DNA of 59,497 bases, from positions 1 through 59,497 of the forward strand of contig CADBWK010000011.1 of assembly GCA_902798385.1 (NCBI GenBank), written 5' to 3'. The notes under the pieces are model-generated. The model was not told the DNA's origin, did not search any database, and saw only the letters and a list, made by a program, of their open reading frames with translations. This document shows positions 847-51,198 of the stretch, one piece after another. Each line of letters opens with the position of its first letter. Positions within the stretch are counted from its first letter, which is position 1. The DNA comes from an uncultured Bacteroidales bacterium. GTDB taxonomy: Bacteria; Bacteroidota; Bacteroidia; Bacteroidales; Paludibacteraceae. The translations under genes and the position numbers were made by a program.

Positions 847-3678
847 ATGAAAGTGAATTACTTGGAGTCGCGTCATATCGGACTCACAGAACAAGACGAA
901 AAAAAGATGTTAGCGGCCGTAGGTGCCGAGTCGATGGAAGCGTTGGTACGCGAGACGATGCCGGCGGATATCCTGTTGCCGGAACCTATCGAGTTGGATG
1001 AGCCGTTCACGGAGCAGGAGTACTTGACGGAATCGGAGCAGGAGTTGCAGAACAACGATGCCTCCGCCCGCTCGTGTATCGGTCGCGGTTGGTACGGCAC
1101 GATCACACCGGCTGTCATTCGTCGTAACATGTTGGAGAACCCCGTTTGGTACACGAGCTACACACCGTATCAGGCCGAAGTGAGTCAGGGACGTCTGGAG
1201 GCGCTGTTTGTATTCCAGACCATGATCAGCGACTTAACGGGTCTGCCGCTGGCTAACTGTTCGTTATTGGACGAGGCCACCGCAGCGGCTGAGTCGGTGA
1301 CGATGATGCGCAACCTGCGCAGTCGCGAGCAAGTGAAGAACAACGTGCGTAAGGTCTTCGTGGATGAGAAGATATGGCCGAACACCTTATCGGTATTGCG
1401 TACGCGCGCTGCGGGACAAGGTATTGAATTGGTTATTGGTAATTGGTCATCGGTGATTGGTCAACTGAAAGCCGAGGAGTATTTCGGTGCGCTCGTTCAA
1501 TGGCCGAACAGCGATGGTTCGATCGAAGAGTACGATGCTTTCGTGGAGGAGTGTCATGCGGCAGGACTCAAAGTGACGGTAGTAGCCGATCTGATGGCAC
1601 TGGCATTGCTCAAGCCGCTGGATGCGGATATCATGTGCGGCACGGCGCAACGTTTCGGTCTGCCGATGGGCTTCGGTGGTCCGACGGCCGGCTATATGGC
1701 TACGCGCGACGAGTACAAACGTGACATGCCGGGACGAATCATCGGTCTGAGTAAGGATAAATACGATCGTCCGGCTTACCGTCTGGCGTTGCAGACCCGT
1801 GAACAGCATATCAAGCGCGAGCGTGCGACCTCGAACATCTGTACGGCCGAGGCACTGTCGGCGATGATGGCAGGTATGTACGGCGTTTATCACGGCGCAG
1901 AAGGTATCCGCGAAATCGCCGAAGGTATCCACGGCAAGGCCGTTTATCTGAGCGAGATGCTGCAGGCCTACGGTTACAATCAAGAGAATGCGGAGTTCTT
2001 CGACACGCTCAAGATCACACGCGACGAGGACGATGAATGGCAAGACAGACTGCGTGAGATAGCGGAAGATGCCGGCTTCAATTTCTATTACGATCCGGAA
2101 GGGTGGGTGAGTCTGGCGATCGATGAGACCATCGGTTTGGCAGAGATGAACCAGTTGATTCAGATCTTTGCGTGGGCAAGCGACAATATCCCGCAGTACG
2201 AAGACAGCGAAGAGGCGTTCGAGAACCTATGGATCATCGATGAGAGTCGTGTGCGCGAGGTCGATTATATGCAGGCAGAGGTATTCCGGAAATACCACAC
2301 GGAGACGGAGTTGATGCGTTATCTGAAGCGCCTCGACCGCAAGGATATCTCGTTGGCCACCTCGATGATTCCGCTGGGCAGTTGTACGATGAAACTGAAC
2401 CCTGCGGCTGCGATGATTCCGATCACCTATACCTGCGCGATGAATATCCATCCGCTGGCTCCGGCAGACCAAGTAGAGGGTTATACGGTGGTAATGGACG
2501 AGTTGAAGAAACAGCTGTGCGCGATTACCGGTTTTGCCGCTTGTACGCTGCAACCGACATCCGGTGCTGCTGGCGAATATACAGGTTTGGTAGTGATCCG
2601 CGAGCGCTTGCATCGTCTGGGACAAACGCAACGCAAGGTACTCTTGATCCCGGCTTCGGCACACGGTACAAACCCGGCTTCGTGTGTTCAGGCAGGCTTT
2701 GAACCCTGCGTGGTGAACTGCGACGAGAAGGGAAATACCGATCTGGCGGACTGGAAAGCAAAAGCAGAGGCGAACAAAGAGGTTCTCGCGGGCTGTATGA
2801 TCACGTATCCGTCCACGCACGGTATCTTCGAGCAAGCGATCCGTGAGATGATTGCGGCTGTGCATGACAACGGCGGACTCGTTTATATGGACGGCGCGAA
2901 CATGAACGCGCAGATCGGTTGGACGAACCCTGCTTATATCGGCGCGGATGTGTGTCACCTCAATCTGCATAAGTCCTTCGCATCGCCTCACGGCGGCGGT
3001 GGCCCGGGCGCAGGTGCGGTATGCTGCACAGAGGCCTTGGCGGACTGTCTGCCGACCGAAGACAAGAACCGCGTTTCTGCCGCTCTCTACGGCAATGCGA
3101 ACATGGCGCTTATCTCGTGGGGTTATATAGCGATGATGGGTGCGGAAGGTCTTCGTCACGCGACGGCCGCTGCTATTTTGAGCGCGAACTACATGGCCAA
3201 ACGTCTGAAGGACGCGTACGGCATCGTTTATACGGGTGCAACGGGTAGAGTAGGACACGAGTTGATTCTCGACTGCCGTCAGTTCCACGCTATCGGCATC
3301 ACGGAGGCAGATATCGCCAAGCGTCTGATGGACTACGGTTATCATGCTCCGACGCTTTCGTTCCCGGTACACGGCACGCTGATGGTAGAGCCGACGGAGA
3401 GTGAGTCGCTCGAGGAGATCGATCGTTTCTGCGACGTGCTGCTGCAGATTCGTCAGGAGATAGCCGATATCGAGAGCGGTAAGGCGGATAAGACGGATAA
3501 CGTGCTGCTCAATGCGCCGCACCCGGAGTATGAGGTGGTAGCTGATGAATGGACGCACCCGTACAGCCGTAAGCAGGCCGCTTATCCGACGGATTGGGTG
3601 GCACAGACGAAGTTCTGGTGCCCGGTAGGACGTGTGGATAACGGATGGGGAGACAGAAACCTGATTGCTAAATTCTAA
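847..3678 (+). CDS. gcvP: Glycine dehydrogenase (decarboxylating), P-protein
   Basis: The PLP-dependent P-protein of the glycine cleavage system. It decarboxylates glycine and passes the aminomethyl group to the lipoyl H-protein. At 943 residues it is a full-length single-chain enzyme (the fused alpha/beta form). The PLP lysine lies near residue 708 in the motif HLNLHKSFASPHGGGGPG. The partner genes gcvT and gcvH are not in the window. The N-terminal half contains a five-unit 7-bp repeat (1426-1460), read in frame as GIELVIGNWSSVIGQLK. It is in the opposite orientation to most of the CAATNAC-type arrays in this window. The following YitT gene starts one base after the stop. Confidence 0.97.
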   Translation: MKVNYLESRHIGLTEQDEKKMLAAVGAESMEALVRETMPADILLPEPIELDEPFTEQEYLTESEQELQNNDASARSCIGRGWYGTITPAVIRRNMLENPVWYTSYTPYQAEVSQGRLEALFVFQTMISDLTGLPLANCSLLDEATAAAESVTMMRNLRSREQVKNNVRKVFVDEKIWPNTLSVLRTRAAGQGIELVIGNWSSVIGQLKAEEYFGALVQWPNSDGSIEEYDAFVEECHAAGLKVTVVADLMALALLKPLDADIMCGTAQRFGLPMGFGGPTAGYMATRDEYKRDMPGRIIGLSKDKYDRPAYRLALQTREQHIKRERATSNICTAEALSAMMAGMYGVYHGAEGIREIAEGIHGKAVYLSEMLQAYGYNQENAEFFDTLKITRDEDDEWQDRLREIAEDAGFNFYYDPEGWVSLAIDETIGLAEMNQLIQIFAWASDNIPQYEDSEEAFENLWIIDESRVREVDYMQAEVFRKYHTETELMRYLKRLDRKDISLATSMIPLGSCTMKLNPAAAMIPITYTCAMNIHPLAPADQVEGYTVVMDELKKQLCAITGFAACTLQPTSGAAGEYTGLVVIRERLHRLGQTQRKVLLIPASAHGTNPASCVQAGFEPCVVNCDEKGNTDLADWKAKAEANKEVLAGCMITYPSTHGIFEQAIREMIAAVHDNGGLVYMDGANMNAQIGWTNPAYIGADVCHLNLHKSFASPHGGGGPGAGAVCCTEALADCLPTEDKNRVSAALYGNANMALISWGYIAMMGAEGLRHATAAAILSANYMAKRLKDAYGIVYTGATGRVGHELILDCRQFHAIGITEADIAKRLMDYGYHAPTLSFPVHGTLMVEPTESESLEEIDRFCDVLLQIRQEIADIESGKADKTDNVLLNAPHPEYEVVADEWTHPYSRKQAAYPTDWVAQTKFWCPVGRVDNGWGDRNLIAKF
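1426..1460 (-). repeat. Heptamer array inside gcvP (5 units)
   Basis: GAATTGG, TTATTGG, TAATTGG, TCATCGG and TGATTGG run in exact 7-bp register. The reverse strand gives the CCAATNA type seen elsewhere. The reading frame passes through without a stop. Confidence 0.8.
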
Positions 3679-3679
3679 G

Positions 3680-4603
3680 ATGGTCAATTTTAGAGAACCG
3701 ATTCGGAAGTACTACCGCGTTTTACCTTGGATCACGCTCAAGGAATTTCTGCTGATCATCATCAGCACCGTTCCTTATGCCTTGACGGTGAACCAACTGT
3801 TGGTACCTCACGCGATCGTAGGCGGCGGTGTAACGGGTTTATGCGAGATCATCTATTTCGCGACGAACACGTACGTGCCTATCTGGCTCAGTAGCGCGCT
3901 GATCAACGTTGTGCTGCTGTTTGTCGCCGCATTCACGATCGGTTGGCGCTATGCATTGCGTACGGTTTGGGGCGTGTTATGGCTGACGATTTGGCTCAAA
4001 GTGATACCTATCGCGGAGATTCCGTTGCTGACCGATTCGTTTATGGCGGTGGTGATAGGTGGTCTTTTCACCGGTTGTTTCCTAGGTATCTGTTTCCTCA
4101 ATAACGGTTCGACAGGCGGTACGGATATCATCGCAATGATCGTCAATAAATACCATCATTTGCCGATGGGGCGCGTGCTGTTATTCGCCGACATGACCAT
4201 CATCTCGTCGGCTTTCTTCCTTCCGAATATCCAAGCGGTCGGCACGCAAGGAGCGATCGAGAAGATCCTTTTCGGTCTGACCTATACGTTTATGCTCTCC
4301 ACGGCTGTGGACTGGATCATGAACCGAATGCGACAGTCGGTGCAGTTTATGATCTTTACGCAGAAACCCGATGAGATAGCGAAAGCTATCATCACACAAG
4401 CCCATCGCGGCTGTACCTTCCTGGATGCGGAAGGCGGCTACAACAAGAAACCGATGAAAGTGGTTACGTGTATCGCTCGTTCGTACGAGTCGGCAACGAT
4501 CTTCCGTCTGGTACGTGCTATCGATCCGAACGCGTTTGTGAGTCAGAGTCAGGTGCGCGGCGTGTTCGGACAAGGTTTTGATCCTATGGCTAACGGAAAG
4601 TAG
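3680..4603 (+). CDS. YitT family membrane protein (first of a tandem pair)
   Basis: A 307-residue integral membrane protein with five to six hydrophobic segments in the first two thirds (YitT_membrane, formerly DUF161) and a soluble C-terminal DUF2179 domain from about residue 220, with the family motif NKKPMKVV and the ending VRGVFGQGFDPM. Substrate and role are unknown for the family. The ATG at 3680, one base after the gcvP stop, is preferred over the TTG at 3665, which would overlap gcvP. A paralogue follows directly; the two share the motif GxxxxNNGSTGGTDIIAMI (here near residue 150). Confidence 0.9.
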   Translation: MVNFREPIRKYYRVLPWITLKEFLLIIISTVPYALTVNQLLVPHAIVGGGVTGLCEIIYFATNTYVPIWLSSALINVVLLFVAAFTIGWRYALRTVWGVLWLTIWLKVIPIAEIPLLTDSFMAVVIGGLFTGCFLGICFLNNGSTGGTDIIAMIVNKYHHLPMGRVLLFADMTIISSAFFLPNIQAVGTQGAIEKILFGLTYTFMLSTAVDWIMNRMRQSVQFMIFTQKPDEIAKAIITQAHRGCTFLDAEGGYNKKPMKVVTCIARSYESATIFRLVRAIDPNAFVSQSQVRGVFGQGFDPMANGK

Positions 4604-4631
4604 TTTAGTGTTTAGAGTTTAGTGTTTAGAG
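4604..4631 (+). repeat. Heptamer array between the two yitT genes (4 units)
   Basis: TTTAGTG, TTTAGAG, TTTAGTG, TTTAGAG in exact tandem fill nearly the whole gap between the stop at 4603 and the ATG at 4634. Confidence 0.85.
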
Positions 4632-4633
4632 AT

Positions 4634-5686: not shown

Positions 5687-5778
5687 GGAGAGTTGACTGA
5701 GTGGTCGAAAGTGCCGCACTCGAAATGCGGTGTACGCATTACGTCGTACCGGGGGTTCGAATCCCTCACTCTCCGCCA
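5687..5778 (+). tRNA. tRNA-Ser (anticodon CGA)
   Basis: The acceptor strands GGAGAGT and ACTCTCC pair fully, followed by discriminator G and an encoded CCA (5776-5778). The anticodon loop CTCGAAA places CGA at 5721-5723, which reads UCG. A long variable arm and the TTCGAAT T-loop are present, as expected for a class II serine tRNA. Its last 13 bases overlap the 3' end of the convergent folK gene. Confidence 0.95.
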
Positions 5779-6200
5779 ATCTCGCGAAGGGGAATAACAA
5801 CGAAATCGCGTTGTTTATAGAGCGGATGGGGTATAGTGAGTAACGGATCGTTGCTCACTATTTCTTTTTGTGTATCGTCATAGACGCGAATGATATCGAT
5901 GTCGATCGGTCGATCGGAATAGACCGGTTTGTGATTGGTAATTGGTGATTTTTGATTTCTGCCTAGGGCGCGCTCGATGGCTTGTGTGGCGTTCAGTACG
6001 TCCATCGGCTGCATAGGTGTCTCTACGCAGCAGCAGATATTACAGAAGGGATTCGGGGACTCAAAGCCCCAGGGCTCGGAATAGAAAAAAGAAGAACAGC
6101 GGGTGACTGTTCCAATCTGCTGCTCAATGCGTTGGAGCGCCTCTTGCAGCGTCTGTTCGCGGTTGCCGAGATTACTTCCCAGCGAAAGATAATAATGCAT
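5766..6200 (-). CDS. folK: 2-amino-4-hydroxy-6-hydroxymethyldihydropteridine pyrophosphokinase (HPPK)
   Basis: Transfers pyrophosphate from ATP to the pterin in folate synthesis. The 144-residue protein has the N-terminal motif LSLGSNLGNR, the SEPWGF segment, and the signature YSDRPIDIDII. The loop just before that signature is lengthened by a 7-bp repeat (NQKSPITNHKPV, genomic 5931-5958), a place where family members normally have a short flexible loop. The gene begins 29 bases inside the end of the cvpA-like gene, and its last five codons (IGGE and stop) are read from the antisense of the tRNA-Ser acceptor stem. Confidence 0.93.
   Translation of the reverse strand: MHYYLSLGSNLGNREQTLQEALQRIEQQIGTVTRCSSFFYSEPWGFESPNPFCNICCCVETPMQPMDVLNATQAIERALGRNQKSPITNHKPVYSDRPIDIDIIRVYDDTQKEIVSNDPLLTIPHPLYKQRDFVVIPLREIGGE
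5931..5958 (-). repeat. Heptamer array inside folK (4 units)
   Basis: On the genomic strand: GTGATTG, GTAATTG, GTGATTT, TTGATTT. On the coding strand these are AAATCAA, AAATCAC, CAATTAC, CAATCAC, giving QKSPITNH. Confidence 0.8.
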
Positions 6201-12724: not shown

Positions 12725-12734
12725 ATATAAATAA

Positions 12735-12755
12735 TTTCAAATATCAAATTTCAAT
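12735..12755 (+). repeat. Heptamer array between dnaB and asnS (3 units)
   Basis: TTTCAAA, TATCAAA and TTTCAAT are in 7-bp register and run up to the dnaB stop codon. Confidence 0.6.
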
Positions 12756-16432: not shown

Positions 16433-16453
16433 TTTAAACTTTAAACTTTAAAC
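16433..16453. repeat. Heptamer array between spoT-like gene and DUF1573 gene (3 units)
   Basis: Three perfect copies of TTTAAAC stand between the start codon at 16429 and the upstream stop at 16454. Confidence 0.85.
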
Positions 16454-29086: not shown

Positions 29087-29601
29087 TGAGCGAAGAAAAA
29101 TCATATCAGCCGGGATGGGGAGAGAAGAAGCATCATCACCACCATCACCATGTGGGACCCAACGAGAAAAACCGGGGTCTCGGCGGGGCGCTACGCATGA
29201 AAGACAAGCAGGCGTATTACGGGCTGATGTGTGTGATCGTCGTGGTGCTGTGTTTTGGCGCGTACAAACTGATCCGGATGTTCGCGCATGAGTTGCGCGC
29301 CATGCCCAACGATGACCCGACGACGGAAATGACGGTAGATGAGTTGCGTATCCATAAGGTGGCGGAACAAGATGCTGTCCTCATGGGAGACAGCCTCGCA
29401 GAGGAATACAATGTCGATTCGCTCAAGCATACCGTGCAGATAGAAACCCGACCGGTTTATCGTCCTCCCAAGCGCGAAGACAAGTGGTACATAACGCAAT
29501 CGGAATGGAAGAAAATCTGGAGGAGTTATAAGACCTGGCGGTGGGAGAAGAAAAGGGATAAAGAGTTGAAAGAGGAAAGTGGAAAGTCGAAAGAACAATG
29601 A
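29086..29601 (+). CDS. Single-pass membrane protein with a natural seven-histidine run
   Basis: A 171-residue protein of unknown function. Residues 16-22 are seven consecutive histidines, which could bind metal. One membrane helix follows (about 46-63, YGLMCVIVVVLCFGAYKLI), then a periplasmic or cytoplasmic charged tail with WYITQSEWKKIWRSYKTWRWEKKRDKE. The final residues (EESGKSKEQ) come from a 7-bp repeat array. It overlaps ffh by one base and folD by four, so it is co-transcribed with housekeeping genes. No family recognised. Confidence 0.7.
   Translation: MSEEKSYQPGWGEKKHHHHHHHVGPNEKNRGLGGALRMKDKQAYYGLMCVIVVVLCFGAYKLIRMFAHELRAMPNDDPTTEMTVDELRIHKVAEQDAVLMGDSLAEEYNVDSLKHTVQIETRPVYRPPKREDKWYITQSEWKKIWRSYKTWRWEKKRDKELKEESGKSKEQ
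29574..29594 (+). repeat. Heptamer array at the 3' end of the His-rich gene (3 units)
   Basis: GGAAAGT, GGAAAGT, CGAAAGA in tandem, just before the ATGA overlap with folD. Confidence 0.65.
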
Positions 29602-34373: not shown

Positions 34374-35221
34374 TGAAACTGCAAACAATCGTGGACATAC
34401 CGGCTTCGCCGTGGAAGATAGGCTATGAGGATCGAATCCTCCTATTGGGTTCGTGTTTCTCGGATGAGATCGGCGAGCAGATGAAGCAGCGTTACCTGAA
34501 CGTAACCTGCAATCCTTTCGGTACGCTCTATAACCCGCTCTCTATCGCGAGTGCGATAAATCTCCAATTACCAATATCCAATGACCAATTGCCGCTCGTA
34601 GAATACGACGGGATGTGGCACTCAATGGCGCATCATGGCTCCTTCTCTCGGGCTACCAAAGAGGAAACCTATGGCGCTGTAAAAGCCTCTGTTGAGACCA
34701 TGCAGAAATCTCTCCGAGAGGCAACGGTGGTCATCGTGACTTTCGGTACGGCATGGGTGTATGAGATGGATGGTGCAATCGTCGGAAACTGCCATAAACT
34801 GCCGGAGAAAAATTTCACGAGGCGACGTCTGACGGTCGATGAGATCGTGGCGGCATGGAAGCCTATCCTCGAGCGTTATCCCGATAAGCACTGGCTCTTT
34901 ACGGTCTCGCCTATACGGCATATCAAAGACGGCTTGCATGAGAACCAACTGTCGAAAGCAACGCTCATACAGGCCGTAGAAGTTATCAGTAATCAGTATT
35001 CAGTTGCCAGTTATTTCCCCTCGTACGAGATCATGCTGGATGAACTGCGCGACTACCGTTTCTATGCGGACGATCTGGTGCATCCCTCCTCCTTGGCGGT
35101 TCAGTATATATGGGAGCGATTCACGGATACGTTCTGCACGAATCAGACCAAGAACGAACTCATCCTTCGGCATAAACAATGGAAGCAAGCACAACATGTG
35201 CCGTTGCATGACAGAACATAA
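34370..35221 (+). CDS. GSCFA domain-containing protein
   Basis: A 283-residue member of the GSCFA family, an SGNH-hydrolase-like group common in Bacteroidetes. The naming motif reads LLLGSCFSDEIGEQM (about 24-38), followed by NPFGTLYNPLSI, VIVTFGTAWVYE and FTVSPIRHIKDG, with YRFYADDLVHPSSLAVQYIWE near the C-terminus. Substrate unknown. Two 7-bp repeat arrays lie in frame: LQLPISNDQLPLVEY near residue 67 and EVISNQYSVASYF near 204. Confidence 0.92.
   Translation: MMKLQTIVDIPASPWKIGYEDRILLLGSCFSDEIGEQMKQRYLNVTCNPFGTLYNPLSIASAINLQLPISNDQLPLVEYDGMWHSMAHHGSFSRATKEETYGAVKASVETMQKSLREATVVIVTFGTAWVYEMDGAIVGNCHKLPEKNFTRRRLTVDEIVAAWKPILERYPDKHWLFTVSPIRHIKDGLHENQLSKATLIQAVEVISNQYSVASYFPSYEIMLDELRDYRFYADDLVHPSSLAVQYIWERFTDTFCTNQTKNELILRHKQWKQAQHVPLHDRT
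34565..34592 (+). repeat. Heptamer array 1 inside the GSCFA gene (4 units)
   Basis: CAATTAC, CAATATC, CAATGAC, CAATTGC, translated as QLPISNDQL. Confidence 0.85.
34981..35015 (+). repeat. Heptamer array 2 inside the GSCFA gene (5 units)
   Basis: AGTTATC, AGTAATC, AGTATTC, AGTTGCC, AGTTATT in exact 7-bp register, translated as VISNQYSVASY. Confidence 0.85.
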
Positions 35222-40100: not shown

Positions 40101-40163
40101 AACGGTCAAGTAGTCATCCTGCGCGACGGCAAGGAGTACAATGTGCTGGGTGCAAAGTTGTAA
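37104..40163 (+). CDS. Large multidomain pectinesterase with C-terminal sorting tail (CE8)
   Basis: A 1019-residue exported enzyme predicted to demethylate pectin. Parts: signal peptide ending MMAQ (residue 19); beta-domain to about 198; two carboxypeptidase-regulatory or Ig-like repeats (about 200-450); a carbohydrate-binding-like beta-domain (about 455-570); CE8 domain (about 577-940) with YATINEALAAI, SRQDALYG near 790, GACDYIFGG near 813 and FGRPW near 882. The last 25 residues (KILRNGQVVILRDGKEYNVLG) match the short beta-type tail found on many secreted Bacteroidales proteins. It is probably paired with the upstream enzyme to act on pectin outside the cell. Confidence 0.88.
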   Translation: MKKIFSLMAAALVSVAMMAQKAQVWDLGAEQLDVATYDNMLSVDEINSWYPSDVTPGSSGKTIGDINASANVNFKFVAGGKTNHRIRTTNTAITRYDDKSLKDAAGVEYTGYIYSNASSATNVYIEQAYEAGDKVEFYVGSNANPAVYEITAPNGDKQQFNYTAAAKIEKITYYVGDAGNYRIHCTNEKLVVARIIRTPATYATVSGTISAPANIPAGYAIVFTNEQTGGVVEATPAAGAYTAQLPVGYDYAVSLKDANGFVVTSVSPIHVAGAMTYDVVIEGVELVTVTGAVEGLPADQLQKVEVVFGLPAGKVYVPELSIDRENATYEAVLEKNVKYGITALNVNDYVMGWDSVYAPFNLSNQNIPFTAKPRYAVTIVPTGATAADLANASFIFTRLDDGYVYSFDGLQDITLRDGVYTVKAENTGAFVQLQTSNLRVEGQAVSKQIDFTADIHEWNFNDADFIAGGYTSTSATYTYKTLEFSGCKSHNNVYLYAGNGGHITVPVKGNCIITVNACYEYHLKVGETIIGDSTSGSTSQIDALTYTYQGAAGSVTIDAFGTCYINSISVEAIADYQPVVTVGAGKDYATINEALAAIGRMTRTAGQGVTVLIEPGNYEEMLRVRVDDVTFKNASETPSIALKDGGVNIDENAVRITSYYGHGYNYYSMNSDFLWDARTLAVNKENGYPSTQNKGGSSDTHWNSTVVVYGKNFSAEGIIFENSYNQYVSQKESQDILEVRIVPNEKIMPVRPTDALNTDVQARNYRERACALAFAKGSDRGFLKDCRVVSRQDALYGDNGVRVAIEGGILNGACDYIFGGMTLAVKKAELAMLVTADANDVAYITASKTDGGKRGYLFMGCSVTSAQPGIDMVETESAKPGYFGRPWSTTAETVFCLTQVGKNGNASLIAPDGWNNGLQSSGSDRSYEYRTIEESGVDNSANRVSWATVLQTNQLPDNTEITLFNFTKGTDNWQPLEEEEPQGISNTTAEAQTAQKILRNGQVVILRDGKEYNVLGAKL

Positions 40164-40194
40164 TTTGTAAATAGTAATTTGTAAATTGTGAATT
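40160..40194 (+). repeat. Heptamer array spanning the pectinesterase stop and transporter start (5 units)
   Basis: GTAATTT, GTAAATA, GTAATTT, GTAAATT, GTGAATT. The first unit contains the TAA stop of the pectinesterase (40161-40163) and the last begins with the GTG start codon of the transporter (40188). Confidence 0.85.
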
Positions 40195-41852
40195 GGTTTA
40201 CTAATCTCTTTTTTGGCACGGGCATAGCACACTCGATAGTGGTGCTTGCCCTTGCCATTACCGTTGGCATCACACTCGGTGCCAAGCTAAAATTTAAAGG
40301 CATCACGCTCGGTATCACGTGGATCCTCTTCTGCGCGATAGCCTGCAGTCATTTCGGTATGACGCTCGACCCGATGGTGGAGTCCTTCGCCAAGGACTTC
40401 GGTCTGATCCTGTTCGTCTACTCGATCGGTCTGCAGGTCGGTCCGTCTTTCTTCTCGAGCTTCGGGAAGGGTGGGCTGAGTCTGAATATGTTAGCGGCGA
40501 GTATCGTGCTGCTCGGTTGTGTCACGGCGTATGTGATTCATCTCGTCAGCGGTGTGGATATCGCCACCATGACCGGTGTGCTCTTCGGTGCTGTTACCAA
40601 CACGCCGGGTCTCGGTGCTGCCGAACAGACTTTCCAGGATATCGCGGGCGTCGCTAATCCCGACATCGCTTCGGGTTATGCGATGTCGTATCCCCTCGGT
40701 GTGGTAGGTATCATCTTCTCGCTGCTGCTCTTGCGCTGGATATTCCGTATCCAACTCGATAAGGAGGAAGAGCAGGTGAAAGCTGAGAAAGGGGAGGAAC
40801 CGCAGATAGTCCATTACGATCTCGAACTAACCAATCCCCAGGTGGAGGGTCTCCGCGTGCGCGATCTCAAGCTCCTGACGCATATCACGATCATCGTCAG
40901 TCGTATCATCGACAAGGACGGCAATGAGTACATGCCCGATGCAGAGACGATCCTGCACGTAGGCGATCAGGTGCGTTTTGTTACCGATCAGGCCAATGAG
41001 CGGACCATCCTCCTGTTAGGTCAGGAGAAAGAGGTGGCGTGGGAAGCACTGGAGAAGAATGTGCATCTGGTGAGCAAACATATTGTGGTCACCAAGCCTA
41101 CTTTCAACGGCAAACGGATCATGGATCTCAAGATCCGCGATGCCTTCACCATCACCATCACGCGCATTCGCCGTGCCGGTATCGAGCTGTTGGCAACGCC
41201 GGAGTTGCGGCTCCAAATGGGAGACCGTCTGACGGTTGTCGGTGAGCAGGAAGCGGTGGATAAGATAGCCGTCAAGTTTGGTAACTCCACCAAGAAACTT
41301 GATGCACCGAATCTGGCATCGCTCTTCTTTGGTATCGTGCTCGGTGTCGTCTTCGGTTCGTTACCGATCATGCTGCCGGGACTCTCGCAACCCTTCAAAC
41401 TCGGTCTGGCGGGCGGTTCGCTGATCGTGGCAATCCTCATCGGTGCGTTCGGTACCAAATGGCATATGGTGACCTACACCACTACCTCCGCCAACCTCAT
41501 GATTCGCGAGATAGGCATCGCCCTCTTCCTCGCGGCGGTGGGCTTTGGTGCCGGAAAATCGTTCATCCCGACGCTCGTGGGCGGAGGATATGTATGGATA
41601 GGATACGGTGTGCTCATTACCTTGATTCCGCTGCTGATCATCGGTTTCATCGCTCGCAAAGGACTCAAACTGGATTACTTCACTCTCATGGGACTCATCG
41701 CCGGCTCAACAACCGACCCGCCGGCATTGGCATACGCTACCTCGCAGTCTTCCGTCAATGACCGGGCGGCTGTGGCGTACTCTACCGTCTATCCCTTGAC
41801 CATGTTCCTTCGTGTGCTCACGGGACAATTGATGATACTCCTGTTCTTGTGA
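40188..41852 (+). CDS. AspT/YidE family transporter with two TrkA-C domains
   Basis: A 554-residue membrane protein of the aspartate-alanine exchanger family. Six hydrophobic segments fall in the first 190 residues (with AVTNTPGLGAAEQ, a repeat of the family signature), two TrkA-C (RCK_C) domains at about 205-370, and a second membrane half with GSTTDPPALAYA near 508, matching the first-half signature. These two related G-x-P-rich loops are typical of AspT. The substrate is unproven. The start is the GTG at 40188, inside a heptamer array; no ATG precedes the first helix. Confidence 0.88.
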   Translation: MNWFTNLFFGTGIAHSIVVLALAITVGITLGAKLKFKGITLGITWILFCAIACSHFGMTLDPMVESFAKDFGLILFVYSIGLQVGPSFFSSFGKGGLSLNMLAASIVLLGCVTAYVIHLVSGVDIATMTGVLFGAVTNTPGLGAAEQTFQDIAGVANPDIASGYAMSYPLGVVGIIFSLLLLRWIFRIQLDKEEEQVKAEKGEEPQIVHYDLELTNPQVEGLRVRDLKLLTHITIIVSRIIDKDGNEYMPDAETILHVGDQVRFVTDQANERTILLLGQEKEVAWEALEKNVHLVSKHIVVTKPTFNGKRIMDLKIRDAFTITITRIRRAGIELLATPELRLQMGDRLTVVGEQEAVDKIAVKFGNSTKKLDAPNLASLFFGIVLGVVFGSLPIMLPGLSQPFKLGLAGGSLIVAILIGAFGTKWHMVTYTTTSANLMIREIGIALFLAAVGFGAGKSFIPTLVGGGYVWIGYGVLITLIPLLIIGFIARKGLKLDYFTLMGLIAGSTTDPPALAYATSQSSVNDRAAVAYSTVYPLTMFLRVLTGQLMILLFL

Positions 41853-43177
41853 CGAACATCAACAAAGACATATTACGACTTGCCATACCGAGTATATTGG
41901 CGAATATCACGATCCCGCTGGTCGGTATCGTGGACACGGCTATCGTCGGGCATCTGAGTGATGCGGCGGCGATAGGCGGCATAGCTATCGGAACGATGCT
42001 CTTTGACCTGTTGTATTGGAACTTCGGCTTCCTGCGTATCGGTACGTCCGGTCTGACAGCCCAAGCCTACGGTGCCGATAACCTCTCGGAATGCCGCAAA
42101 CTCCTGACGCAGAGTCTGACGATCGCCCTGATGGGGGCGGCTGTCATCTGGGCAATACAATGGTTCTTCGTGACGGTCGTCTTGGCGATAGTGCCTTGTT
42201 CGGCGGAAGTGGAGACGGTAGCGAAAAACTATTTCTTCGTGCGTATATGGGCGGCTCCTGCTACGTTGATGCTCTTTGCCTTTAAAGGCTGGTTCATCGG
42301 TATGCAGGATACCAAAAGTCCGATGGCGGTGGATATACTGGTCAATGTGGTGAACATGCTCGCCAGCTATTTCCTCGCCGTCCATACGCCCCTGGGTATC
42401 GTGGGCGTGGCATGGGGAACGCTGATAGCCCAGTACTGCGGATTGCTCCTCGCGGTGGCGATCTTGTTCTTTCGGTATTCGGATATCCCGGTATTCCGGT
42501 ATAGTGATTGGTGCGCCGCCATGCGCTGGCCTCAGATGCGTCGCTTCATGACGCTGAGCGGCAACCTCGTTATCCGTTCGCTCTGTTTTATGGTGGTCTA
42601 TGTAGGTTATACCTACCTGGCCGGCACGCATGGCGATATTGAACTGGCGGTGAGCAGTATCCTAATGAAACTCTTTATGTTCTTCTCCTTCTTTGTGGAC
42701 GGTTTTGCCTATGCCGGAGAAGCACTGGTAGGCAAAGCCTACGGAGAGAAGAATGAATCAAAAATAAAAGATCAAAAATCACCAATCGTGGACGTAGTCC
42801 ACGCACTTTTTAATTGGAGTATCGGTGTAGGACTGCTCTTCACGCTCTTCTATGCCTTGACAGGAAGAACGAATATCGAAATGATGACAAATGATGCGGA
42901 TGTCATAACGGCATCCACACGCTATATAGGATGGCTCATCGCGATGCCGCTCATCAGTACCTTGGCGTTCATGTGGGATGGTATCTATGTGGGCGCGACA
43001 GCAGGCAAACAGATACGTAACTCGATGATCTGGGCAGCCGTCTGTTTCGTGGTAGGCTACGCGGCAACGTATCGCTTGGTGGGGGCGCAGGCTTTGTATA
43101 TCGCCTATTTCGCCCACCTCATCGCGCGAGCCGTTTATTTGACAATAGAATGGAAAAATGTGAAAAATTATGGATAA
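41849..43177 (+). CDS. MATE family efflux transporter (DinF-like)
   Basis: A 442-residue inner-membrane antiporter with twelve hydrophobic segments and the MATE start DILRLAIPSILANITIPLVGIVDTAIVGHL, close to the DinF subfamily. It starts with GTG inside the stop of the previous gene. Residues near 303-314 (ESKIKDQKSPIV) come from a heptamer array in a loop between helices, and the segment FRYSDIPVFRYSD near 207-219 is a second, less regular duplication. Likely exports drugs or metabolites using a cation gradient. It overlaps the adaptor gene downstream by 8 bases. Confidence 0.9.
   Translation: MTNINKDILRLAIPSILANITIPLVGIVDTAIVGHLSDAAAIGGIAIGTMLFDLLYWNFGFLRIGTSGLTAQAYGADNLSECRKLLTQSLTIALMGAAVIWAIQWFFVTVVLAIVPCSAEVETVAKNYFFVRIWAAPATLMLFAFKGWFIGMQDTKSPMAVDILVNVVNMLASYFLAVHTPLGIVGVAWGTLIAQYCGLLLAVAILFFRYSDIPVFRYSDWCAAMRWPQMRRFMTLSGNLVIRSLCFMVVYVGYTYLAGTHGDIELAVSSILMKLFMFFSFFVDGFAYAGEALVGKAYGEKNESKIKDQKSPIVDVVHALFNWSIGVGLLFTLFYALTGRTNIEMMTNDADVITASTRYIGWLIAMPLISTLAFMWDGIYVGATAGKQIRNSMIWAAVCFVVGYAATYRLVGAQALYIAYFAHLIARAVYLTIEWKNVKNYG
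42471..42501 (+). repeat. Short irregular tandem repeat inside the MATE gene
   Basis: TTCGGTA, TTCGGAT, then TATCCCGG, TATTCCGG: units of 7 and then 8 bases, giving the peptide repeat FRYSD-IPV-FRYSD. It is related in style to the heptamer arrays but not in strict register. Confidence 0.45.
42757..42787 (+). repeat. Heptamer array inside the MATE gene (4 units)
   Basis: ATCAAAA, ATAAAAG, ATCAAAA, ATCACCA, translated as SKIKDQKSP. Confidence 0.8.
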
Positions 43178-44219
43178 TAGGTTTTGGATTTTAGGCTTGG
43201 TGGCGTGTCTTTTCTTTTCGTGCGCGCAGCGCGAAGGCACGCAGCATAATCAGGCATCTATCAAAGTGCAGACGATAGTGGTGACGTCTCAAGAGACATC
43301 GGCTACTTCGCGTTATGTAGGAACTATCGAACCGGCACAAGAGACACCGCTCAGCCTGCAGACTACCGGTAGAGTGGTGGCGGTGCATGTAAAGAATGGT
43401 CAGCGCGTCAAAGCCGGACAGGCTATCCTGGATGTGGATAACACGCAGGCTCTCAATGCCCTTCACGGCGCGGAGGCTGCCCTTAAGCATGCGCAAGACG
43501 GGTATGATCGCGTGAGCAAAGTGCATGACAAAGGGGTCGTGTCCGACCAGAAGATGGTGGAGATAGAGAGCGATCTGGCGCAAGCACGTTCCCTCTATAA
43601 CGGTGCCAAACAGCAACTGGCCGAGTGTACACTGAAGGCGCCTTGTGAGGGTGTGATCAGTGGACTCGAAGCCGTCATCGGACAGACCATCATCCCGGGA
43701 ACTACGCTCTGCAAACTGCTGGATGTCTCGGGCTTCAGTGTACGTTTTACCGTGCCGGAGAGCGAGATCAACGGCTTGGGCAAGAGCGGCACGGTAGAGT
43801 GCGCGGCGGTGAATAAGGTGTTGCCGATCACGCTCAAAGAGACAGGCATCGTGGCGAATACCGTCACACATACCTACGACGTCGTGGCGCGTGTCCAAGG
43901 CGGGGCAGACATCCTGAAGACCGGCATGGTCGCCATCGTCAAAATCACCAATCACCCATACCTTCAGATCGTGCCGTCAGGCAAAGAATCACCAATCACC
44001 AATAATAGTATCGTCATCCCTGCCAAATGCATCCTGCTCAAACCCGAGGGACATACCGTGTGGGTGGTAGAAGATGGCAAAGCCGTGCGCCGGTCGATCA
44101 CCATCGACGGCTATCAGGCAGACGGCGTTCGAGTGCTCTCCGGCCTGCAGGAAGGCGATATATTGATTACAGAAGGATACCAGAAACTTTATAACAACTG
44201 TTCCATTGAAAACGAGTAA
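43170..44219 (+). CDS. RND efflux periplasmic adaptor (HlyD/MFP family)
   Basis: A 349-residue membrane-fusion lipoprotein linking an RND pump to an outer-membrane channel. The signal segment ends with the lipobox LFFSC (cysteine about 16). Order: beta-barrel/lipoyl half (VGTIEPAQETPLSLQTTGRVVAVHVKNGQRVKAGQAILDVD), helical hairpin (about 85-140), second lipoyl half (LKAPCEGVISGLEAVIGQ), beta-barrel, and C-terminal domain. SGKESPITNNSIVIP near 269-283 comes from a heptamer array. It overlaps the RND gene by 14 bases; no TolC-type gene is present. Confidence 0.92.
   Translation: MDNRFWILGLVACLFFSCAQREGTQHNQASIKVQTIVVTSQETSATSRYVGTIEPAQETPLSLQTTGRVVAVHVKNGQRVKAGQAILDVDNTQALNALHGAEAALKHAQDGYDRVSKVHDKGVVSDQKMVEIESDLAQARSLYNGAKQQLAECTLKAPCEGVISGLEAVIGQTIIPGTTLCKLLDVSGFSVRFTVPESEINGLGKSGTVECAAVNKVLPITLKETGIVANTVTHTYDVVARVQGGADILKTGMVAIVKITNHPYLQIVPSGKESPITNNSIVIPAKCILLKPEGHTVWVVEDGKAVRRSITIDGYQADGVRVLSGLQEGDILITEGYQKLYNNCSIENE
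43986..44006 (+). repeat. Heptamer array inside the adaptor gene (3 units)
   Basis: GAATCAC, CAATCAC, CAATAAT, translated as ESPITNN. Confidence 0.75.
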
Positions 44220-47277: not shown

Positions 47278-47848
47278 TCATATGGATCAGTGTACGGAGG
47301 CCGAAGTGCAACGCATGCTTCCGCTTGTCTCCGCGCAGCGGCGCGAACAAGCACTGAAGTACAAACATACTTTCGGGCAGTTCTGCTGTTTGAAAAGTTG
47401 GTTAATGTTGGAGCAGGAAATGAAATCTTTCAACTTTCCACTTTCCACTTTCAACTACGATAAGTATGGTAAGCCATACGTCGTAAATGGTCCTTACTTC
47501 TCGATCTCGCATTGCAAGGAAGGTATCGCCGTAGCCATTGATGACCAACCGATAGGCATCGATATCGAAGCCATTCGCCATGCCGATGAAGACCTGATAG
47601 AACGTACGATGAACGAAAAAGAACAATTACAAATTACCAATCACCAATTACCAATCGAAAGCGCTCGCGCTTTCACCCGCCTCTGGACGCAAAAAGAAGC
47701 CATTGTTAAAGCCCAAGGAGTAGGGATCAGGTCTTTTGAACAACTCCAATCGATACTCGACAATCGAACATCGAACATCGAGACCGTTGAAAAAGAGAAA
47801 TATATTTATTCAATAGCATATGGAAAATTACATTGTATCGGCGCGTAA
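47258..47848 (+). CDS. 4'-phosphopantetheinyl transferase superfamily protein (Sfp-type)
   Basis: Transfers phosphopantetheine from CoA to carrier proteins. The 196 residues have the two family motifs, IGIDIEAIRHAD near 104-115 (magnesium-binding Asp) and FTRLWTQKEAIVKAQGVGI near 143-161 (WxxKEA). The gene carries three separate 7-bp arrays: FNFPLSTFNYD (about 58-68), QLQITNHQLPIES (about 122-134, between the motifs) and NRTSNIET near the C-terminus. It overlaps the RND pump gene by 20 bases and dnaX by 29. Confidence 0.9.
   Translation: MRIMIFDHMDQCTEAEVQRMLPLVSAQRREQALKYKHTFGQFCCLKSWLMLEQEMKSFNFPLSTFNYDKYGKPYVVNGPYFSISHCKEGIAVAIDDQPIGIDIEAIRHADEDLIERTMNEKEQLQITNHQLPIESARAFTRLWTQKEAIVKAQGVGIRSFEQLQSILDNRTSNIETVEKEKYIYSIAYGKLHCIGA
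47433..47453 (+). repeat. Heptamer array 1 inside the PPTase gene (3 units)
   Basis: ACTTTCC, ACTTTCC, ACTTTCA, preceded by a related 8-base unit ATCTTTCA. Confidence 0.75.
47624..47658 (+). repeat. Heptamer array 2 inside the PPTase gene (5 units)
   Basis: CAATTAC, AAATTAC, CAATCAC, CAATTAC, CAATCGA in exact register, translated as QLQITNHQLPIE. Confidence 0.85.
47763..47783 (+). repeat. Heptamer array 3 inside the PPTase gene (3 units)
   Basis: ATCGAAC, ATCGAAC, ATCGAGA, translated as NRTSNIE. Confidence 0.75.
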
Positions 47849-49511
47849 GTACCGTCCGCAGACCTTTGAGTCAGTGGTCGGGCAACAAGCGCTCACGCAG
47901 ACGCTGCAGAACGCCATCCGGCAGAACCGTTTGGCGCATGCCTACTTATTCTGTGGCCCGCGTGGAGTAGGTAAGACGACCTGCGCACGTATCTTCGCCA
48001 AGACCATTAACTGCCTTAACCCGCAGAACGGTTTTGACGCATGTAACGAGTGCGAGTCGTGTAAAGCCTTCAATGAGCAGCGATCGTTTAACATCCACGA
48101 ACTCGATGCGGCATCTAACAACTCCGTGGAGGACATCAAGTCCATCCTCGATCAGGTGCGCATCCCGCCGCAGATCGGTAAGTACTCTGTCTATATCATC
48201 GATGAGGTACATATGCTCTCTACCCAGGCTTTCAATGCCCTGCTCAAGACACTCGAGGAACCGCCCGCATATGCCATCTTCATCCTCGCTACCACGGAGA
48301 AGCATAAGGTCATACCTACCATCCTCAGCCGTTGCCAGGTCTATGACTTCAACCGCATCACGGTGCAGGACACCGTGGCGCACCTGCAGTCGATTGCAGC
48401 CAAAGAAGGCATTACCGTCAGCGAAGAGGCACTCAACGTGGTGGCGCAGAAAGCCGATGGTGGACTGCGTGACGCCCTGTCGATCTTCGACCAACTCGTC
48501 GCTTTCTGTGGTAACACGATTACCTACGAGCAGACGATTGCCGTGCTCAACGTCCTCAATTCGGATTATTACTTCTCATTGGTGGAGAACGCCTTGCGAC
48601 ATGATGTAACGGCAGCATTACTGCTCTTCAACGACGTCCTCAATCATGGCTTCGATGCCGGACATTTCATCACAGGACTGGCGCAGCACCTGCGCGATGT
48701 ACTCGTCTCCAAAGATCCGCAGACCCTGCCGCTGCTCGAGACTTCCGATGCGATCCGCAAACGTTATGCCGAGCAAGCCCAGCACTGCGCTCCGATCTGG
48801 ATCTTCCAGGCACTCGATATCCTCAATACCTGCGATATCAACTACCGCACGGCGCGTAACAAACGCCTCACGGTGGAGTTAGCTCTCGTCAAACTGACCC
48901 AACTCGGCATCCCGCAGAATGTTCCTACACAGGCTCCATCGGAGCCTACTAAACCGGTGCAGCCGAATAAACTTTCTACACCGGTTGCGCAACAACCGTC
49001 TACACCTCCTAAACAGGCGCAGCCTACTACACCGGCGCAGCCGTCTGCACCCAAAATACCTAGTATCAGTTTGGGATTAGGCAAAAAGAAAGAAGAAATC
49101 ACCAATCACCAATCACAAATCACAAATACTCCTCCTCAGGAGGAGTCCTCCCGCCCTTTTACGGCTGACCAACTCAGAGACGCGTGGGTTGGTCTGGCTG
49201 CTACCCATACAGAACAATTGCGTCTCAAACAGTTGATGGAGACTTACATGCCGCAACTGATCGAAGAGCATATAGCTCAGATTCAAATGCCGAACCCCTG
49301 GCAGATGAAAGAACTGCAAAAAGCCATGCCGGCTCTCCTGCGCCAACTGCGCACCGCTTTGCATAACTCCGATCTGCAGATCAACGTCGTTCAGGAGGAG
49401 TATAGTCAAGAACAAATGGCTTTTACTGCCGAAGAGAAATATGCGCTCATGGCAGAGCAAAACCCCGCTTTGGCGCAACTCAAAGAAACACTCGACTTAC
49501 AGATTGACTGA
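47820..49511 (+). CDS. dnaX: DNA polymerase III subunit gamma/tau
   Basis: Clamp-loader ATPase. The 563 residues start YIVSARKYRPQTFESVVGQ, with Walker A GPRGVGKTTCARIFAK near 43-58, a four-cysteine zinc site (CLNPQNGFDACNECESC), DEVHMLSTQAFNALLKTLEEPP, and sensor 1 ATTEKHKVIPTILSRCQVYDF. A Pro/Gln/Thr-rich linker spans about 365-445 and includes EEITNHQSQITNTPP from a heptamer array, before a C-terminal tau-like domain. No obvious programmed frameshift signal was seen. It overlaps the genes on both sides. Confidence 0.95.
   Translation: MENYIVSARKYRPQTFESVVGQQALTQTLQNAIRQNRLAHAYLFCGPRGVGKTTCARIFAKTINCLNPQNGFDACNECESCKAFNEQRSFNIHELDAASNNSVEDIKSILDQVRIPPQIGKYSVYIIDEVHMLSTQAFNALLKTLEEPPAYAIFILATTEKHKVIPTILSRCQVYDFNRITVQDTVAHLQSIAAKEGITVSEEALNVVAQKADGGLRDALSIFDQLVAFCGNTITYEQTIAVLNVLNSDYYFSLVENALRHDVTAALLLFNDVLNHGFDAGHFITGLAQHLRDVLVSKDPQTLPLLETSDAIRKRYAEQAQHCAPIWIFQALDILNTCDINYRTARNKRLTVELALVKLTQLGIPQNVPTQAPSEPTKPVQPNKLSTPVAQQPSTPPKQAQPTTPAQPSAPKIPSISLGLGKKKEEITNHQSQITNTPPQEESSRPFTADQLRDAWVGLAATHTEQLRLKQLMETYMPQLIEEHIAQIQMPNPWQMKELQKAMPALLRQLRTALHNSDLQINVVQEEYSQEQMAFTAEEKYALMAEQNPALAQLKETLDLQID
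49096..49130 (+). repeat. Heptamer array inside dnaX (5 units)
   Basis: AAATCAC, CAATCAC, CAATCAC, AAATCAC, AAATACT, translated as EITNHQSQITNT in the linker before the tau domain. Confidence 0.85.
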
Positions 49512-51198
49512 CCTGCTCAAATATCTGCCGACAACCAAGAAGGAAACAGATCTGCGCGGCTGGGATGAAGTGGACATCGTCTTCTTCACTGGCGACGCGT
49601 ATATCGACCATCCTTCGTTTGGCGCAGCCGTCTTGGGACGTGTCCTCGAGGCTGCCGGCTATCGTGTGGCGATAGTGCCGCAACCCGACTGGCACGGCGA
49701 CTTCCGGGACTTCAAGAAGTTCGGTCGCCCGCGTCTCTATTTCGCTGTATCAGCCGGCAGTATGGACTCGATGGTCAATCATTACACCGCCGCCAAACGA
49801 CGTCGTTCGGACGATGCCTACACCCCCGACGGACGTGCCGGCATGCGACCCGACTATTGCACCATCACCTACTGCCGTATCCTTAAGCAACTATACCCCG
49901 ATGTACCCGTCGTCATTGGCGGTATCGAGGCGTCCATGCGACGGCTCACTCATTACGATTATTGGCAGGACAAACTCATGCCCTCCATCCTCGTGGACTC
50001 CGGCGCAGACATCCTCGTCTACGGCATGGGCGAACAAGCCATGACCGAGATCGCCAATCAAATCAAAAATCAAAAATCAAAAATCAAAAATATTCCTCAG
50101 ACGGCCTATCTCACTTCCGACAAAAGTGAGATACCGGCTGACGCAATCATCCTCGCTTCCCACGAAGAAGCCCTGCGCGACAAACGCAAGCATGCAGAGA
50201 ATTTCCGCCTCATGGAGATAGAGTCCAATAAGATCCATCAGACCACGCTCGTGCAGCCGGTCGGCAAACAATGGGTGGTCGTCAATCCGTCCTATCCGCC
50301 GATCACGACCGAGCAACTCGATGCCATCTATGACCTGCCGTACACCTATACGCCGCACCCCAAATACAAGGGTAAGCGGATCCCCGCCTACGACATGATC
50401 AAATGGTCCGTCTGCATGCACCGCGGCTGTTTCGGCGGGTGCTCGTTCTGCACGATCTCAGCCCACCAGGGCAAACAGATTGTCTCGCGATCCAAAGCGT
50501 CCATACTGCGGCAGATAGAAAAACTGAGCAAGTTACCCGACTGGCATGGTATCATATCCGATCTCGGCGGACCCTCGGCAAATATGTATCAGATGCATGG
50601 AAAAGACATGTCCCTCTGCGAGAAATGTGCGCGGCCGTCCTGTCTCCAACCCGCTATATGCAAGAACCTCAATCGGGATTTTGCCCCGCTCATCGATATC
50701 TACCGCACCGTGGACAAACTGCCGTACGTCAAGCATGCCTTCGTCGGTTCGGGTATCCGCTATGACCTGATGAGCGAAGACTATGCGCGCCAACTCATCA
50801 CGCGCCATGTGTCCGGACGACTCAAGGTCGCGCCCGAGCATAGCTCTGACCCCGTGCTGCATATCATGCGCAAACCCAATTGGTCGAACTACCTCGAGTT
50901 CCGCAAACTCTTCTTGCGTATCAATGAAGAGGCGGGGCTCCACCAACAGCTCATACCCTATTTCATCTCGTCCCATCCGGGCTGCACCAAGCGCGACATG
51001 GCGCATTTGGCGGAAGAGACGAAAAAAATGCATTATCGCCCGGAGCAGGTACAGGACTTCACGCCGACGCCCATGACGCTCTCGACAACGATGTTCTACA
51101 CCGGCATCAACCCCTATACGCGCGAACCCATTTATGTCGCGCGTACACCCGAAGAGAAAAAACAACAAAATCAATATTTTTTCTGGTATAAGAAATGA
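49504..51198 (+). CDS. ygiQ: YgiQ family radical SAM protein
   Basis: A radical SAM enzyme of unknown substrate. The TTG at 49504, overlapping the dnaX stop, gives LTDLLKYLPTTKKETDLRGW, the usual N-terminus. The frame is open to an ATG at 49441, but that extension lies wholly inside dnaX. The N-terminal domain has VFFTGDAYIDHPSFGAAVLGR; the [4Fe-4S] cluster motif is CxxxCxxC in MHRGCFGGCSFCTISAHQG near 305; PEHSSDPVL follows. QIKNQKSKIKNIPQ near 188-201 derives from a heptamer array. About 564 residues. Confidence 0.9.
   Translation: MTDLLKYLPTTKKETDLRGWDEVDIVFFTGDAYIDHPSFGAAVLGRVLEAAGYRVAIVPQPDWHGDFRDFKKFGRPRLYFAVSAGSMDSMVNHYTAAKRRRSDDAYTPDGRAGMRPDYCTITYCRILKQLYPDVPVVIGGIEASMRRLTHYDYWQDKLMPSILVDSGADILVYGMGEQAMTEIANQIKNQKSKIKNIPQTAYLTSDKSEIPADAIILASHEEALRDKRKHAENFRLMEIESNKIHQTTLVQPVGKQWVVVNPSYPPITTEQLDAIYDLPYTYTPHPKYKGKRIPAYDMIKWSVCMHRGCFGGCSFCTISAHQGKQIVSRSKASILRQIEKLSKLPDWHGIISDLGGPSANMYQMHGKDMSLCEKCARPSCLQPAICKNLNRDFAPLIDIYRTVDKLPYVKHAFVGSGIRYDLMSEDYARQLITRHVSGRLKVAPEHSSDPVLHIMRKPNWSNYLEFRKLFLRINEEAGLHQQLIPYFISSHPGCTKRDMAHLAEETKKMHYRPEQVQDFTPTPMTLSTTMFYTGINPYTREPIYVARTPEEKKQQNQYFFWYKK
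50062..50089 (+). repeat. Heptamer array inside ygiQ (4 units)
   Basis: Four perfect ATCAAAA units, translated as IKNQKSKIKN. Confidence 0.85.

What the first reader, a model, noticed from the sequence alone, without database searches (positions are those of the whole stretch)
1426..50089. Genome-dispersed heptanucleotide tandem repeats that read through genes in frame
At least 17 arrays share an exact 7-bp period but have different unit sequences: CAATNAC (folK, mce, GSCFA, RND adaptor, PPTase, dnaX; reversed in gcvP), ATCAAAA (MATE, ygiQ), TTTAAAC, TTTAGWG, GTAAWTT, ACTTTCC, ATCGAAC, GGAAAGT, AGTNNTC, TTTCAAA. Thirteen are inside genes. Because 7 is not a multiple of 3, a CAATNAC array gives a 7-residue peptide repeat (ITNHQLP). 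The constant period with variable units points to an active generating process, not to spread of one sequence. Heptameric short tandemly repeated repetitive sequences are known from cyanobacteria; their presence here, inserted into essential genes, looks undescribed. The MATE tract at 42471 (7 then 8 bp) may be a decaying example.
Basis: partly seen in the sequence, partly recalled or inferred. Interest (0 to 1): 0.88.

Follow-up and report, generated by a model that had tools for sequence, protein, structure and literature searches.

The report
Seven-base DNA repeats rewriting gene linkers
A gut-type bacterium and its sister species carry many short DNA tracts made of about four copies of a seven-letter word, often inside genes; across species the same spots hold different words, so an active but unexplained process seems to keep adding and rewriting them.

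Summary
The window has 13 period-7 arrays (score >=10) against 0.05 in resampled DNA. A 459-kb genome sample has 79, against 0-12 for each other period from 2 to 13. Synonymous-codon shuffling removes them (10 versus 0.48). They are a trait of the genus (Bacteroidales, probably Paludibacteraceae).

In an 18-kb syntenic region of 21 genomes, 71 of 97 arrays could be anchored. They fall into 17 sites, 14 of them used by two or more species and one by ten, and most same-site pairs have different units. Length differences between orthologous arrays are mostly multiples of 3 but rarely of 7 (79 and 3 of 100). Against array-less orthologues, 39 of 64 arrays differ by 9 nt or less and 23 gain 12 nt or more, so insertion and length-neutral rewriting both occur. 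Units are shared within a genome beyond chance (0 of 1000 permutations).

Heptamer repeats, and heptamers as the commonest long repeat class, are known. Site reuse with unit replacement, genome dialects and in-frame rewriting of genes seem new. Best reading: neutral turnover by 7-nt misalignment plus template switching. Why seven is unknown.

The parts
1427..1463 (+). array ATTGGTN inside gcvP-like gene (847-3678); stands where 19 of 28 other aligned genomes read G-x-Y-A-D
4602..4631 (.). array GTTTAGW at the junction of two YitT-like genes
5934..5958 (-). short degenerate array in folK-like gene (5766-6200, minus strand), peptide SPITNHKP
   Evidence: (score 9)
12733..12754 (.). weak array TTTCAAA between two minus-strand genes
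   Evidence: score 9
16433..16455 (.). array TTTAAAC between two minus-strand genes
20337..20372 (+). array CAATNAC in mce-like gene (19994-20893), peptide QSPITNDQLP; G046, G051, G053, G057 and G059 have arrays at this site
29564..29593 (+). array GGAAAGT near the C-terminal end of ORF 29086-29601
34559..34589 (+). degenerate array CCAATNN in GSCFA-like gene (found by TRF only)
34981..35004 (+). array AGTNNTC in the same GSCFA-like gene
40158..40195 (.). array GTAAWTT across a gene junction; G003 has no array and is 22 nt shorter here
42745..42790 (+). decayed array in the MATE linker; eight other genus genomes have arrays at this site
43987..44003 (+). array AATCACC in RND-adaptor-like gene; site used by four genomes
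47427..47456 (+). array ACTTTCM in PPTase-like gene (47258-47848); site used by four genomes
47624..47655 (+). array CAATTAC in the same gene; +21 nt against several orthologues, +9 or 0 against others
47750..47781 (+). array ATCGAAC in the same gene; site used by seven genomes
49096..49127 (+). array AATCACM in the dnaX linker; G003 and G048 have equal-length arrays in the same register
50060..50091 (+). perfect array AAATCAA in the YgiQ-like linker; site used by ten genomes with several different units

Best explanation
The tracts are a lineage-specific, still active class of heptanucleotide tandem repeats (STRR or long-SSR type) that keep arising and being rewritten where selection tolerates change: protein linkers, gene ends and short spacers. 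Shown: period 7, about four copies, diverse units, site reuse across species, unit replacement, frame-keeping, length differences that are seldom whole units, and genome-specific preferred words. Inferred: while a short patch is copied, the growing strand repeatedly re-pairs seven bases back, making a run of about 30 nt, and then resumes at another place on the template, so that sequence is added, replaced or both. Part of the time the copied word comes from another array by template switching, which would give each genome its dialect. Existing arrays are homogenised in place by the same misalignment. Purifying selection keeps products that stay in frame without stops or lie between genes. The arrays themselves are probably not adaptive.
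For: Period 7 dominates. Sites shared: 14 of 17 by two or more genomes, from 71 of 97 arrays. Of 137 anchored same-site pairs, 37 have equal length; of the 100 others, 79 differ by a multiple of 3 and 3 by a multiple of 7. Of 64 arrays with an array-less orthologue, 39 are within 9 nt and only 7 gain a non-zero multiple of 7. gcvP replacement with +9 nt. Equal-length arrays with units changed in nearly all copies and register kept: true register best in 23 of 37, mean identity 0.54 versus about 0.20 at +-3, e.g. AAGCTAA versus AAGGTGA in G015/G046. Dialects: 0/1000 permutations, whole-genome counts. Enrichment near gene ends. Full MutS1 over the cut-off in 56 of 61 genomes, among them G000, G003, G006, G015, G046, G048 and G051.
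Against: Nothing shows the 7-nt back-step directly; why 7 is unknown. In the closest pair, 11 of 16 array/no-array comparisons are gains of 12 nt or more, two of them 21, and in G015/G046 three of six array gaps are 21 or 28 nt, as plain expansion predicts. Unit similarity is not higher between arrays within 3 kb (62/500 and 203/500 permutations reach the observed value), and G000 units are no more alike within the genome than between G000 and G003. Same-site pairs are not independent, flank indels in divergent linkers blur lengths, and some 'array-less' orthologues may be decayed arrays; three zero-difference cases look so by eye. In the pooled 7-genome and 8-genome sets, lag 7 stays slightly above lag 8 after masking (0.2505 versus 0.2488; 0.2535 versus 0.2498), though not in G000 or G003.
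Confidence: 0.45

Rival explanations
1. Ordinary local replication slippage: each array grew from a single local heptamer by 7-nt steps, frame selection kept +21 nt in genes, and point mutation plus slippage changed units over time. Shared sites are simply the few tolerant places.
For: Gains of 21 or 28 nt, some with a recognisable local seed (L167:9322 versus G000; ATTGTAA in G046); 11 of 16 close comparisons are gains; period-14 and period-21 higher-order arrays; published slippage hypothesis for heptamers (PMC4692102, passage read).
Against: Only 3 of 100 non-zero length differences between same-site arrays are multiples of 7 and 7 of 64 against array-less orthologues; genome dialects; gcvP +9 nt.
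Confidence: 0.32
2. The arrays are functional binding sites (DNA- or RNA-binding protein, nucleoid or translation control), with unit preference following the protein's changing specificity, as suggested for TAACTGA arrays upstream of start codons in Beggiatoaceae.
For: Genome-specific preferred units; a narrow length range, 187 of 299 between 27 and 34 nt; nearly half lie near gene ends; units use fewer self-complementary steps than shuffled ones.
Against: 87 canonical units among 210 arrays; about half are inside coding linkers of unrelated genes; many species lack an array at a given site.
Confidence: 0.1
3. A templated enzyme, such as a reverse transcriptase working like telomerase from an RNA template, writes heptamers at breaks; template drift gives dialects.
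For: Dialects and fixed period; replacement in part.
Against: RVT_1 matches in 14 of 61 genomes (G015 and G046 among them) but not in G000, G003, G006, G048 or G051, all with many arrays (G051 97% complete, the others 74-84%); too many units for one template.
Confidence: 0.04
4. Chance, coding bias or assembly artefact.
For: None found.
Against: Three controls; the same sites in separately held genomes.
Confidence: 0.01

Closest known systems
STRR heptanucleotide repeats of cyanobacteria (Calothrix, Nostoc)
   Same: Seven-base unit, dispersed arrays. The unit TTGGTCA (STRR2, recalled, from no call) is in the same rotation class as AATGACC, the unit of 4 of 101 arrays.
   Different: Few unit types there (three heptanucleotides in Calothrix, PMC4692102 passage); here 87 classes in 210 arrays, about half well inside genes.
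Heptanucleotide long simple sequence repeats (Mrazek and colleagues 2007, seen only as cited in PMC4692102 and PMC4679880)
   Same: Heptanucleotides reported as the most abundant long SSR class in most genomes; slippage linked to the polymerase contact length proposed.
   Different: In the passages I saw, no rewriting of shared sites, dialects or in-gene replacement; in coding regions multiples of three are said to be favoured.
GGGAATC repeats of Xanthomonas and GGGGA(T/C)T of Nostoc (PMC4692102, passages read)
   Same: Heptamers, most often four units; much length and sequence variation between the same genes in two species.
   Different: One unit family per genus, G-rich, described as intergenic.
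TAACTGA direct repeats of Beggiatoaceae, cyanobacteria and five Bacteroidetes (PMC4679880, passages read)
   Same: [quoted passage not shown] The complement TCAGTTA forms an array in the Marinifilum locus L076.
   Different: One unit; related heptamers rarely repeated there; mostly just upstream of start codons; regulatory role proposed.

Membership tests
Heptanucleotide short tandem repeats (STRR / heptamer SSR) | Head-to-tail units of exactly 7 bp, in excess over other unit lengths | tested here: met
Heptanucleotide short tandem repeats (STRR / heptamer SSR) | Many dispersed sites in one genome | tested here: met
   91 arrays (score >=11) in 459 kb
Heptanucleotide short tandem repeats (STRR / heptamer SSR) | Few unit types, mainly intergenic (as in the cyanobacterial and Xanthomonas sets) | tested here: not met
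   87 canonical units in 210 arrays; 47 of 91 well inside ORFs. So filed as a variant, not as STRR in the strict sense
Phase-variable contingency repeats | Copy-number change between strains that switches a gene on or off | not testable with these tools
   one genome per species is held; several arrays lie in housekeeping-type genes
Mobile repeat elements (MITE, REP, BIME) | One shared sequence | tested here: not met
   87 canonical units in 210 arrays
Mobile repeat elements (MITE, REP, BIME) | Terminal inverted repeats or palindromes, target duplication | not tested
   flanks were only looked at by eye; within units palindromic dinucleotides are fewer than in shuffled units, 1.33 versus 1.72
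Telomerase-like or retroelement-written repeats | A reverse transcriptase in every array-rich genome | tested here: not met
   RVT_1 in 14 of 61, absent from several array-rich genomes (MAGs incomplete)

The most novel reading that the evidence does not exclude
Each genome keeps a drifting pool of seven-base words that is copied in trans into a set of tolerant slots across the chromosome, overwriting coding linkers in frame: a template-driven, genome-wide concerted evolution of short coding sequence in a bacterium.
Probability: 0.22. Interest if true: 0.85.

Novelty: new variant of a known kind. Interest (0 to 1): 0.56.

Why it matters
Why long bacterial repeats favour seven bases is unexplained beyond a polymerase-contact hypothesis (PMC4692102, passage). 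This genus offers a natural experiment: genomes rich and poor in arrays, close species pairs (G000/G003 83.5%, G015/G046 81.2% DNA identity over about 15 kb), and the same sites filled with different words, so birth, replacement and decay could be dated. It also shows a mutational process that writes new peptide segments in frame into conserved proteins (dnaX, gcvP, YgiQ, MATE), a source of linker evolution that would otherwise be read as ordinary divergence.

Tried and rejected
Global lag-7 mutation bias: after masking arrays, lag 7 is level with its neighbours in G000 and G003 and slightly raised in two pooled sets; not pursued. Local spread of units: not significant. Reverse transcriptase: absent from several array-rich genomes. 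Loss of MutS: not the general cause; 56 of 61 genomes have MutS1 over the cut-off. Below it are G018 (no match), G047 and G075 (weak matches only; G075 is AAAGGTG-rich) and G056 and G062 (fragments), all MAGs of 54-92% completeness. Ku-type end joining: 0 of 61. A fixed hexamer plus one free base: deviations do cluster in phases, but one substitution also gives lag-7 runs of six, so I do not claim it. Clean insertion, or overwriting, as the only rule: both rejected. Dialects on a tree: sisters agree (G015/G046, G000/G003), but AAAGGTG-rich genomes occur in several clades of a 30-genome dnaX tree with 11 of 27 inner branches starred. No Pfam, NCBIfam or structure search of the window proteins was made; gene names come from the finding and from reading the translations.
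Full report
What is there. Tandem Repeats Finder lists many period-7 rows in the window. A simple lag-match scan finds 13 period-7 arrays with score 10 or more against a mean of 0.05 in 20 dinucleotide-Markov resamplings; other periods from 4 to 24 give 0 to 3, except 14 with 9. In the window plus 20 other 20-kb stretches of the same genome (459,497 of 1,920,810 b) there are 79 arrays at score 12 or more, against none in one order-3 Markov control and 0-12 for each other period from 2 to 13. Shuffling synonymous codons within 40 predicted window genes leaves 0.48 arrays on average where 10 are seen, so the repeat is at the DNA level and not a by-product of a peptide repeat.

Where they sit. 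Of 91 arrays in the sample (score 11 or more), 47 lie well inside ORFs and 44 touch the zones within 35 nt of an ORF end, which are 8.3% of the DNA (gene calls are longest-ORF, so rough). Arrays are AT-rich (GC 0.34 versus 0.50), and their units hold fewer self-complementary dinucleotides than letter-shuffled units (1.33 versus 1.72 per unit). Over 299 arrays in 12 genomes, 187 are 27-34 nt long. After masking arrays, lag 7 is level with its neighbours in G000 and G003; in pooled sets of seven and eight other genomes it stays slightly above lag 8.

The genus. The two closest named relatives found with dnaX are an uncultured Bacteroidales bacterium (RUG456) and a Paludibacteraceae bacterium from horse faeces, about 80% identical in protein, so the family is probably Paludibacteraceae; the genome itself is unnamed. 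Array density varies: 39.5 per 100 kb in G051, 19.8 in G000, 13.8 in G022, and none (score 11 or more) in 19.0 kb of G004, 20 kb of G057 and 8.6 kb of G047, although G057 has 49 CAATCAC hits genome-wide. With the CAATCAC pattern, 21 of 295 genomes sampled from the class have a match, G000 included; 17 of the 21 have five hits or fewer. Loci of Terrimonas (L110, five arrays) and Longitalea (L146, eight) also hold diverse arrays.

Same places, different words. I fetched the region around dnaX from 20 other genus genomes. Of 97 arrays (score 10 or more) in the 21 regions, 71 could be anchored on G000. They fall into 17 sites; 14 are used by at least two genomes, one by eight and one by ten. At the YgiQ linker near 50070 the units include AAATCAA, AAAGTCG, AAAGGTG, GGAAAGT, AATTAAA and AATGGCA. 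Units at the same site are still more alike than expected (21.5% of pairs with at least six of seven identical, versus 9.6+-2.2% after permutation, 0/1000), from shared descent, shared coding constraint or both; the other 78.5% differ more.

How they change. In 137 same-site pairs with both flanks anchored, 37 have the same length. Of the other 100, 79 differ by a multiple of three, as coding sequence must, but only 3 by a multiple of seven. If arrays changed only by gaining or losing units, in-frame differences should be 21 nt. For 64 arrays that have an array-less orthologue, the best-anchored difference is within 9 nt in 39, a gain of 12 nt or more in 23 and a loss of 12 or more in 2; seven are non-zero multiples of seven. 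Results on the other side: in the closest pair, G000/G003, 11 of 16 array/no-array comparisons are gains of 12-88 nt, two of them 21, and in G015/G046 six array-bearing gaps measure 28, 15, 26, 21, 28 and 30 nt. So births often look like insertions, sometimes of whole units with a local seed, while over longer times the sites are refilled with little length change. The pairs are not independent and linker flanks are noisy.

Clear single cases. In gcvP, 30 genomes were aligned. G000 reads LVIGNWSSVIGQLK, with three residues more than 27 of the others; 19 of the 28 without the array read G-x-Y-A-D at that place; G055 differs in its own way. The segment is 90 nt in G000 and G062 and 81 nt in the four others measured. 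G062 has a related peptide whose DNA is a degenerate lag-7 repeat (16 of 34 matches; 63 of 5000 shuffles as high), while G043, its nearest in the dnaX tree, lacks it. In the PPTase-like gene, G015 and G046 hold equal-length arrays, TGGAAAG against TGGACAT, in the same register in nearly every copy, and over 37 equal-length pairs the true register is the best of seven shifts in 23. So arrays can also be inherited and homogenised without changing length.

Genome dialects. Units at different sites of one genome resemble each other more than when units are reassigned among genomes within sites (16.5% versus 7.8+-1.9%, 176 pairs, 0/1000). Whole-genome pattern counts over 61 genus genomes agree: AAAGGTG gives 146 hits in G015, 111 in G075, 96 in G046, 70 in G051, 10 in G003 and 5 in G000; CAATCAC gives 65 in G003, 58 in G000, 49 in G057 and 17 in G015; G063 has none of CAATCAC but 78 hits of the backwards-read control, CACTAAC. 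Hits overlap within arrays, so they are not array counts, and the backwards control of AAAGGTG is itself a unit that some genomes use (G000 has 10 control hits against 5). Against a dialect: in G000 units are no more alike within the genome than between G000 and G003, and near arrays are not more alike than distant ones. On a dnaX tree of 30 genomes, sisters share dialects but AAAGGTG-rich genomes are scattered.

Mechanism. Shown: period, sites, replacement, frame, dialect. Inferred: 7-nt back-slippage during copying of a short patch, with resumption at a new place, occasional template switching to another array, and later in-place homogenisation. Tested: reverse transcriptase matches in 14 of 61 genomes and not in several array-rich ones, Ku in none, and MutS1 over the cut-off in 56 of 61. 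MAG completeness (54-100%) limits absences.

Known context. PMC4692102 (passages read) says heptameric repeats were found over-represented in many bacterial genomes, cites three heptanucleotides in Calothrix, reports 186 and 183 GGGAATC tracts in two Xanthomonas genomes with much variation between the same genes, and repeats the idea that 7 nt may be the DNA length in contact with the polymerase. PMC4679880 (passages read) reports TAACTGA repeats in Beggiatoaceae, cyanobacteria and five Bacteroidetes and says heptanucleotides were the most abundant class in most genomes. My searches (listings only, open-licence PMC papers) showed no report of genus-wide heptamer arrays with site reuse, unit replacement and in-gene rewriting in Bacteroidales. 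That is not proof of absence.

Verdict. A real and unusual form of a known kind of repeat. It both inserts and rewrites, it returns to the same slots in different species, and the words are partly shared across each genome.

Noticed in passing
window 53055-55971: A YifB/ComM-like ORF (53055-54179, 374 aa) seems to lack its usual 3' end and overlaps a serine-recombinase-like ORF (54136-55971), so a mobile element may sit in comM here. Family names are recalled from the translations, not searched.
   Followed up: no
window 3665-5611: Two adjacent YitT-like membrane genes (name recalled) look like a tandem duplicate, with a heptamer array at their junction.
   Followed up: no
window 49005-49051: The dnaX linker also holds an 18-bp repeat; G003 has a perfect CCAATCA heptamer array in the corresponding stretch.
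   Followed up: partly
G003 sample L147, L167-L186; G000 sample: A smaller number of period-11 arrays (13 in G003, 7 in G000 at score >=12) and of period 8 (12 in G000) accompanies period 7.
   Followed up: no
L028:14129-14157 and L183:19335-19363: One heptamer array is identical in G000 and G003 although most compared sites differ; it may be constrained or recently exchanged.
   Followed up: no
G063 (genus member): Its preferred unit may be CACTAAC, found only because it matched the reversed control pattern (78 hits).
   Followed up: no
L107 (Bacteroidales contig): An 8.3-kb locus with six period-7 and 17 period-8 hits, worth a look as a separate case.
   Followed up: no
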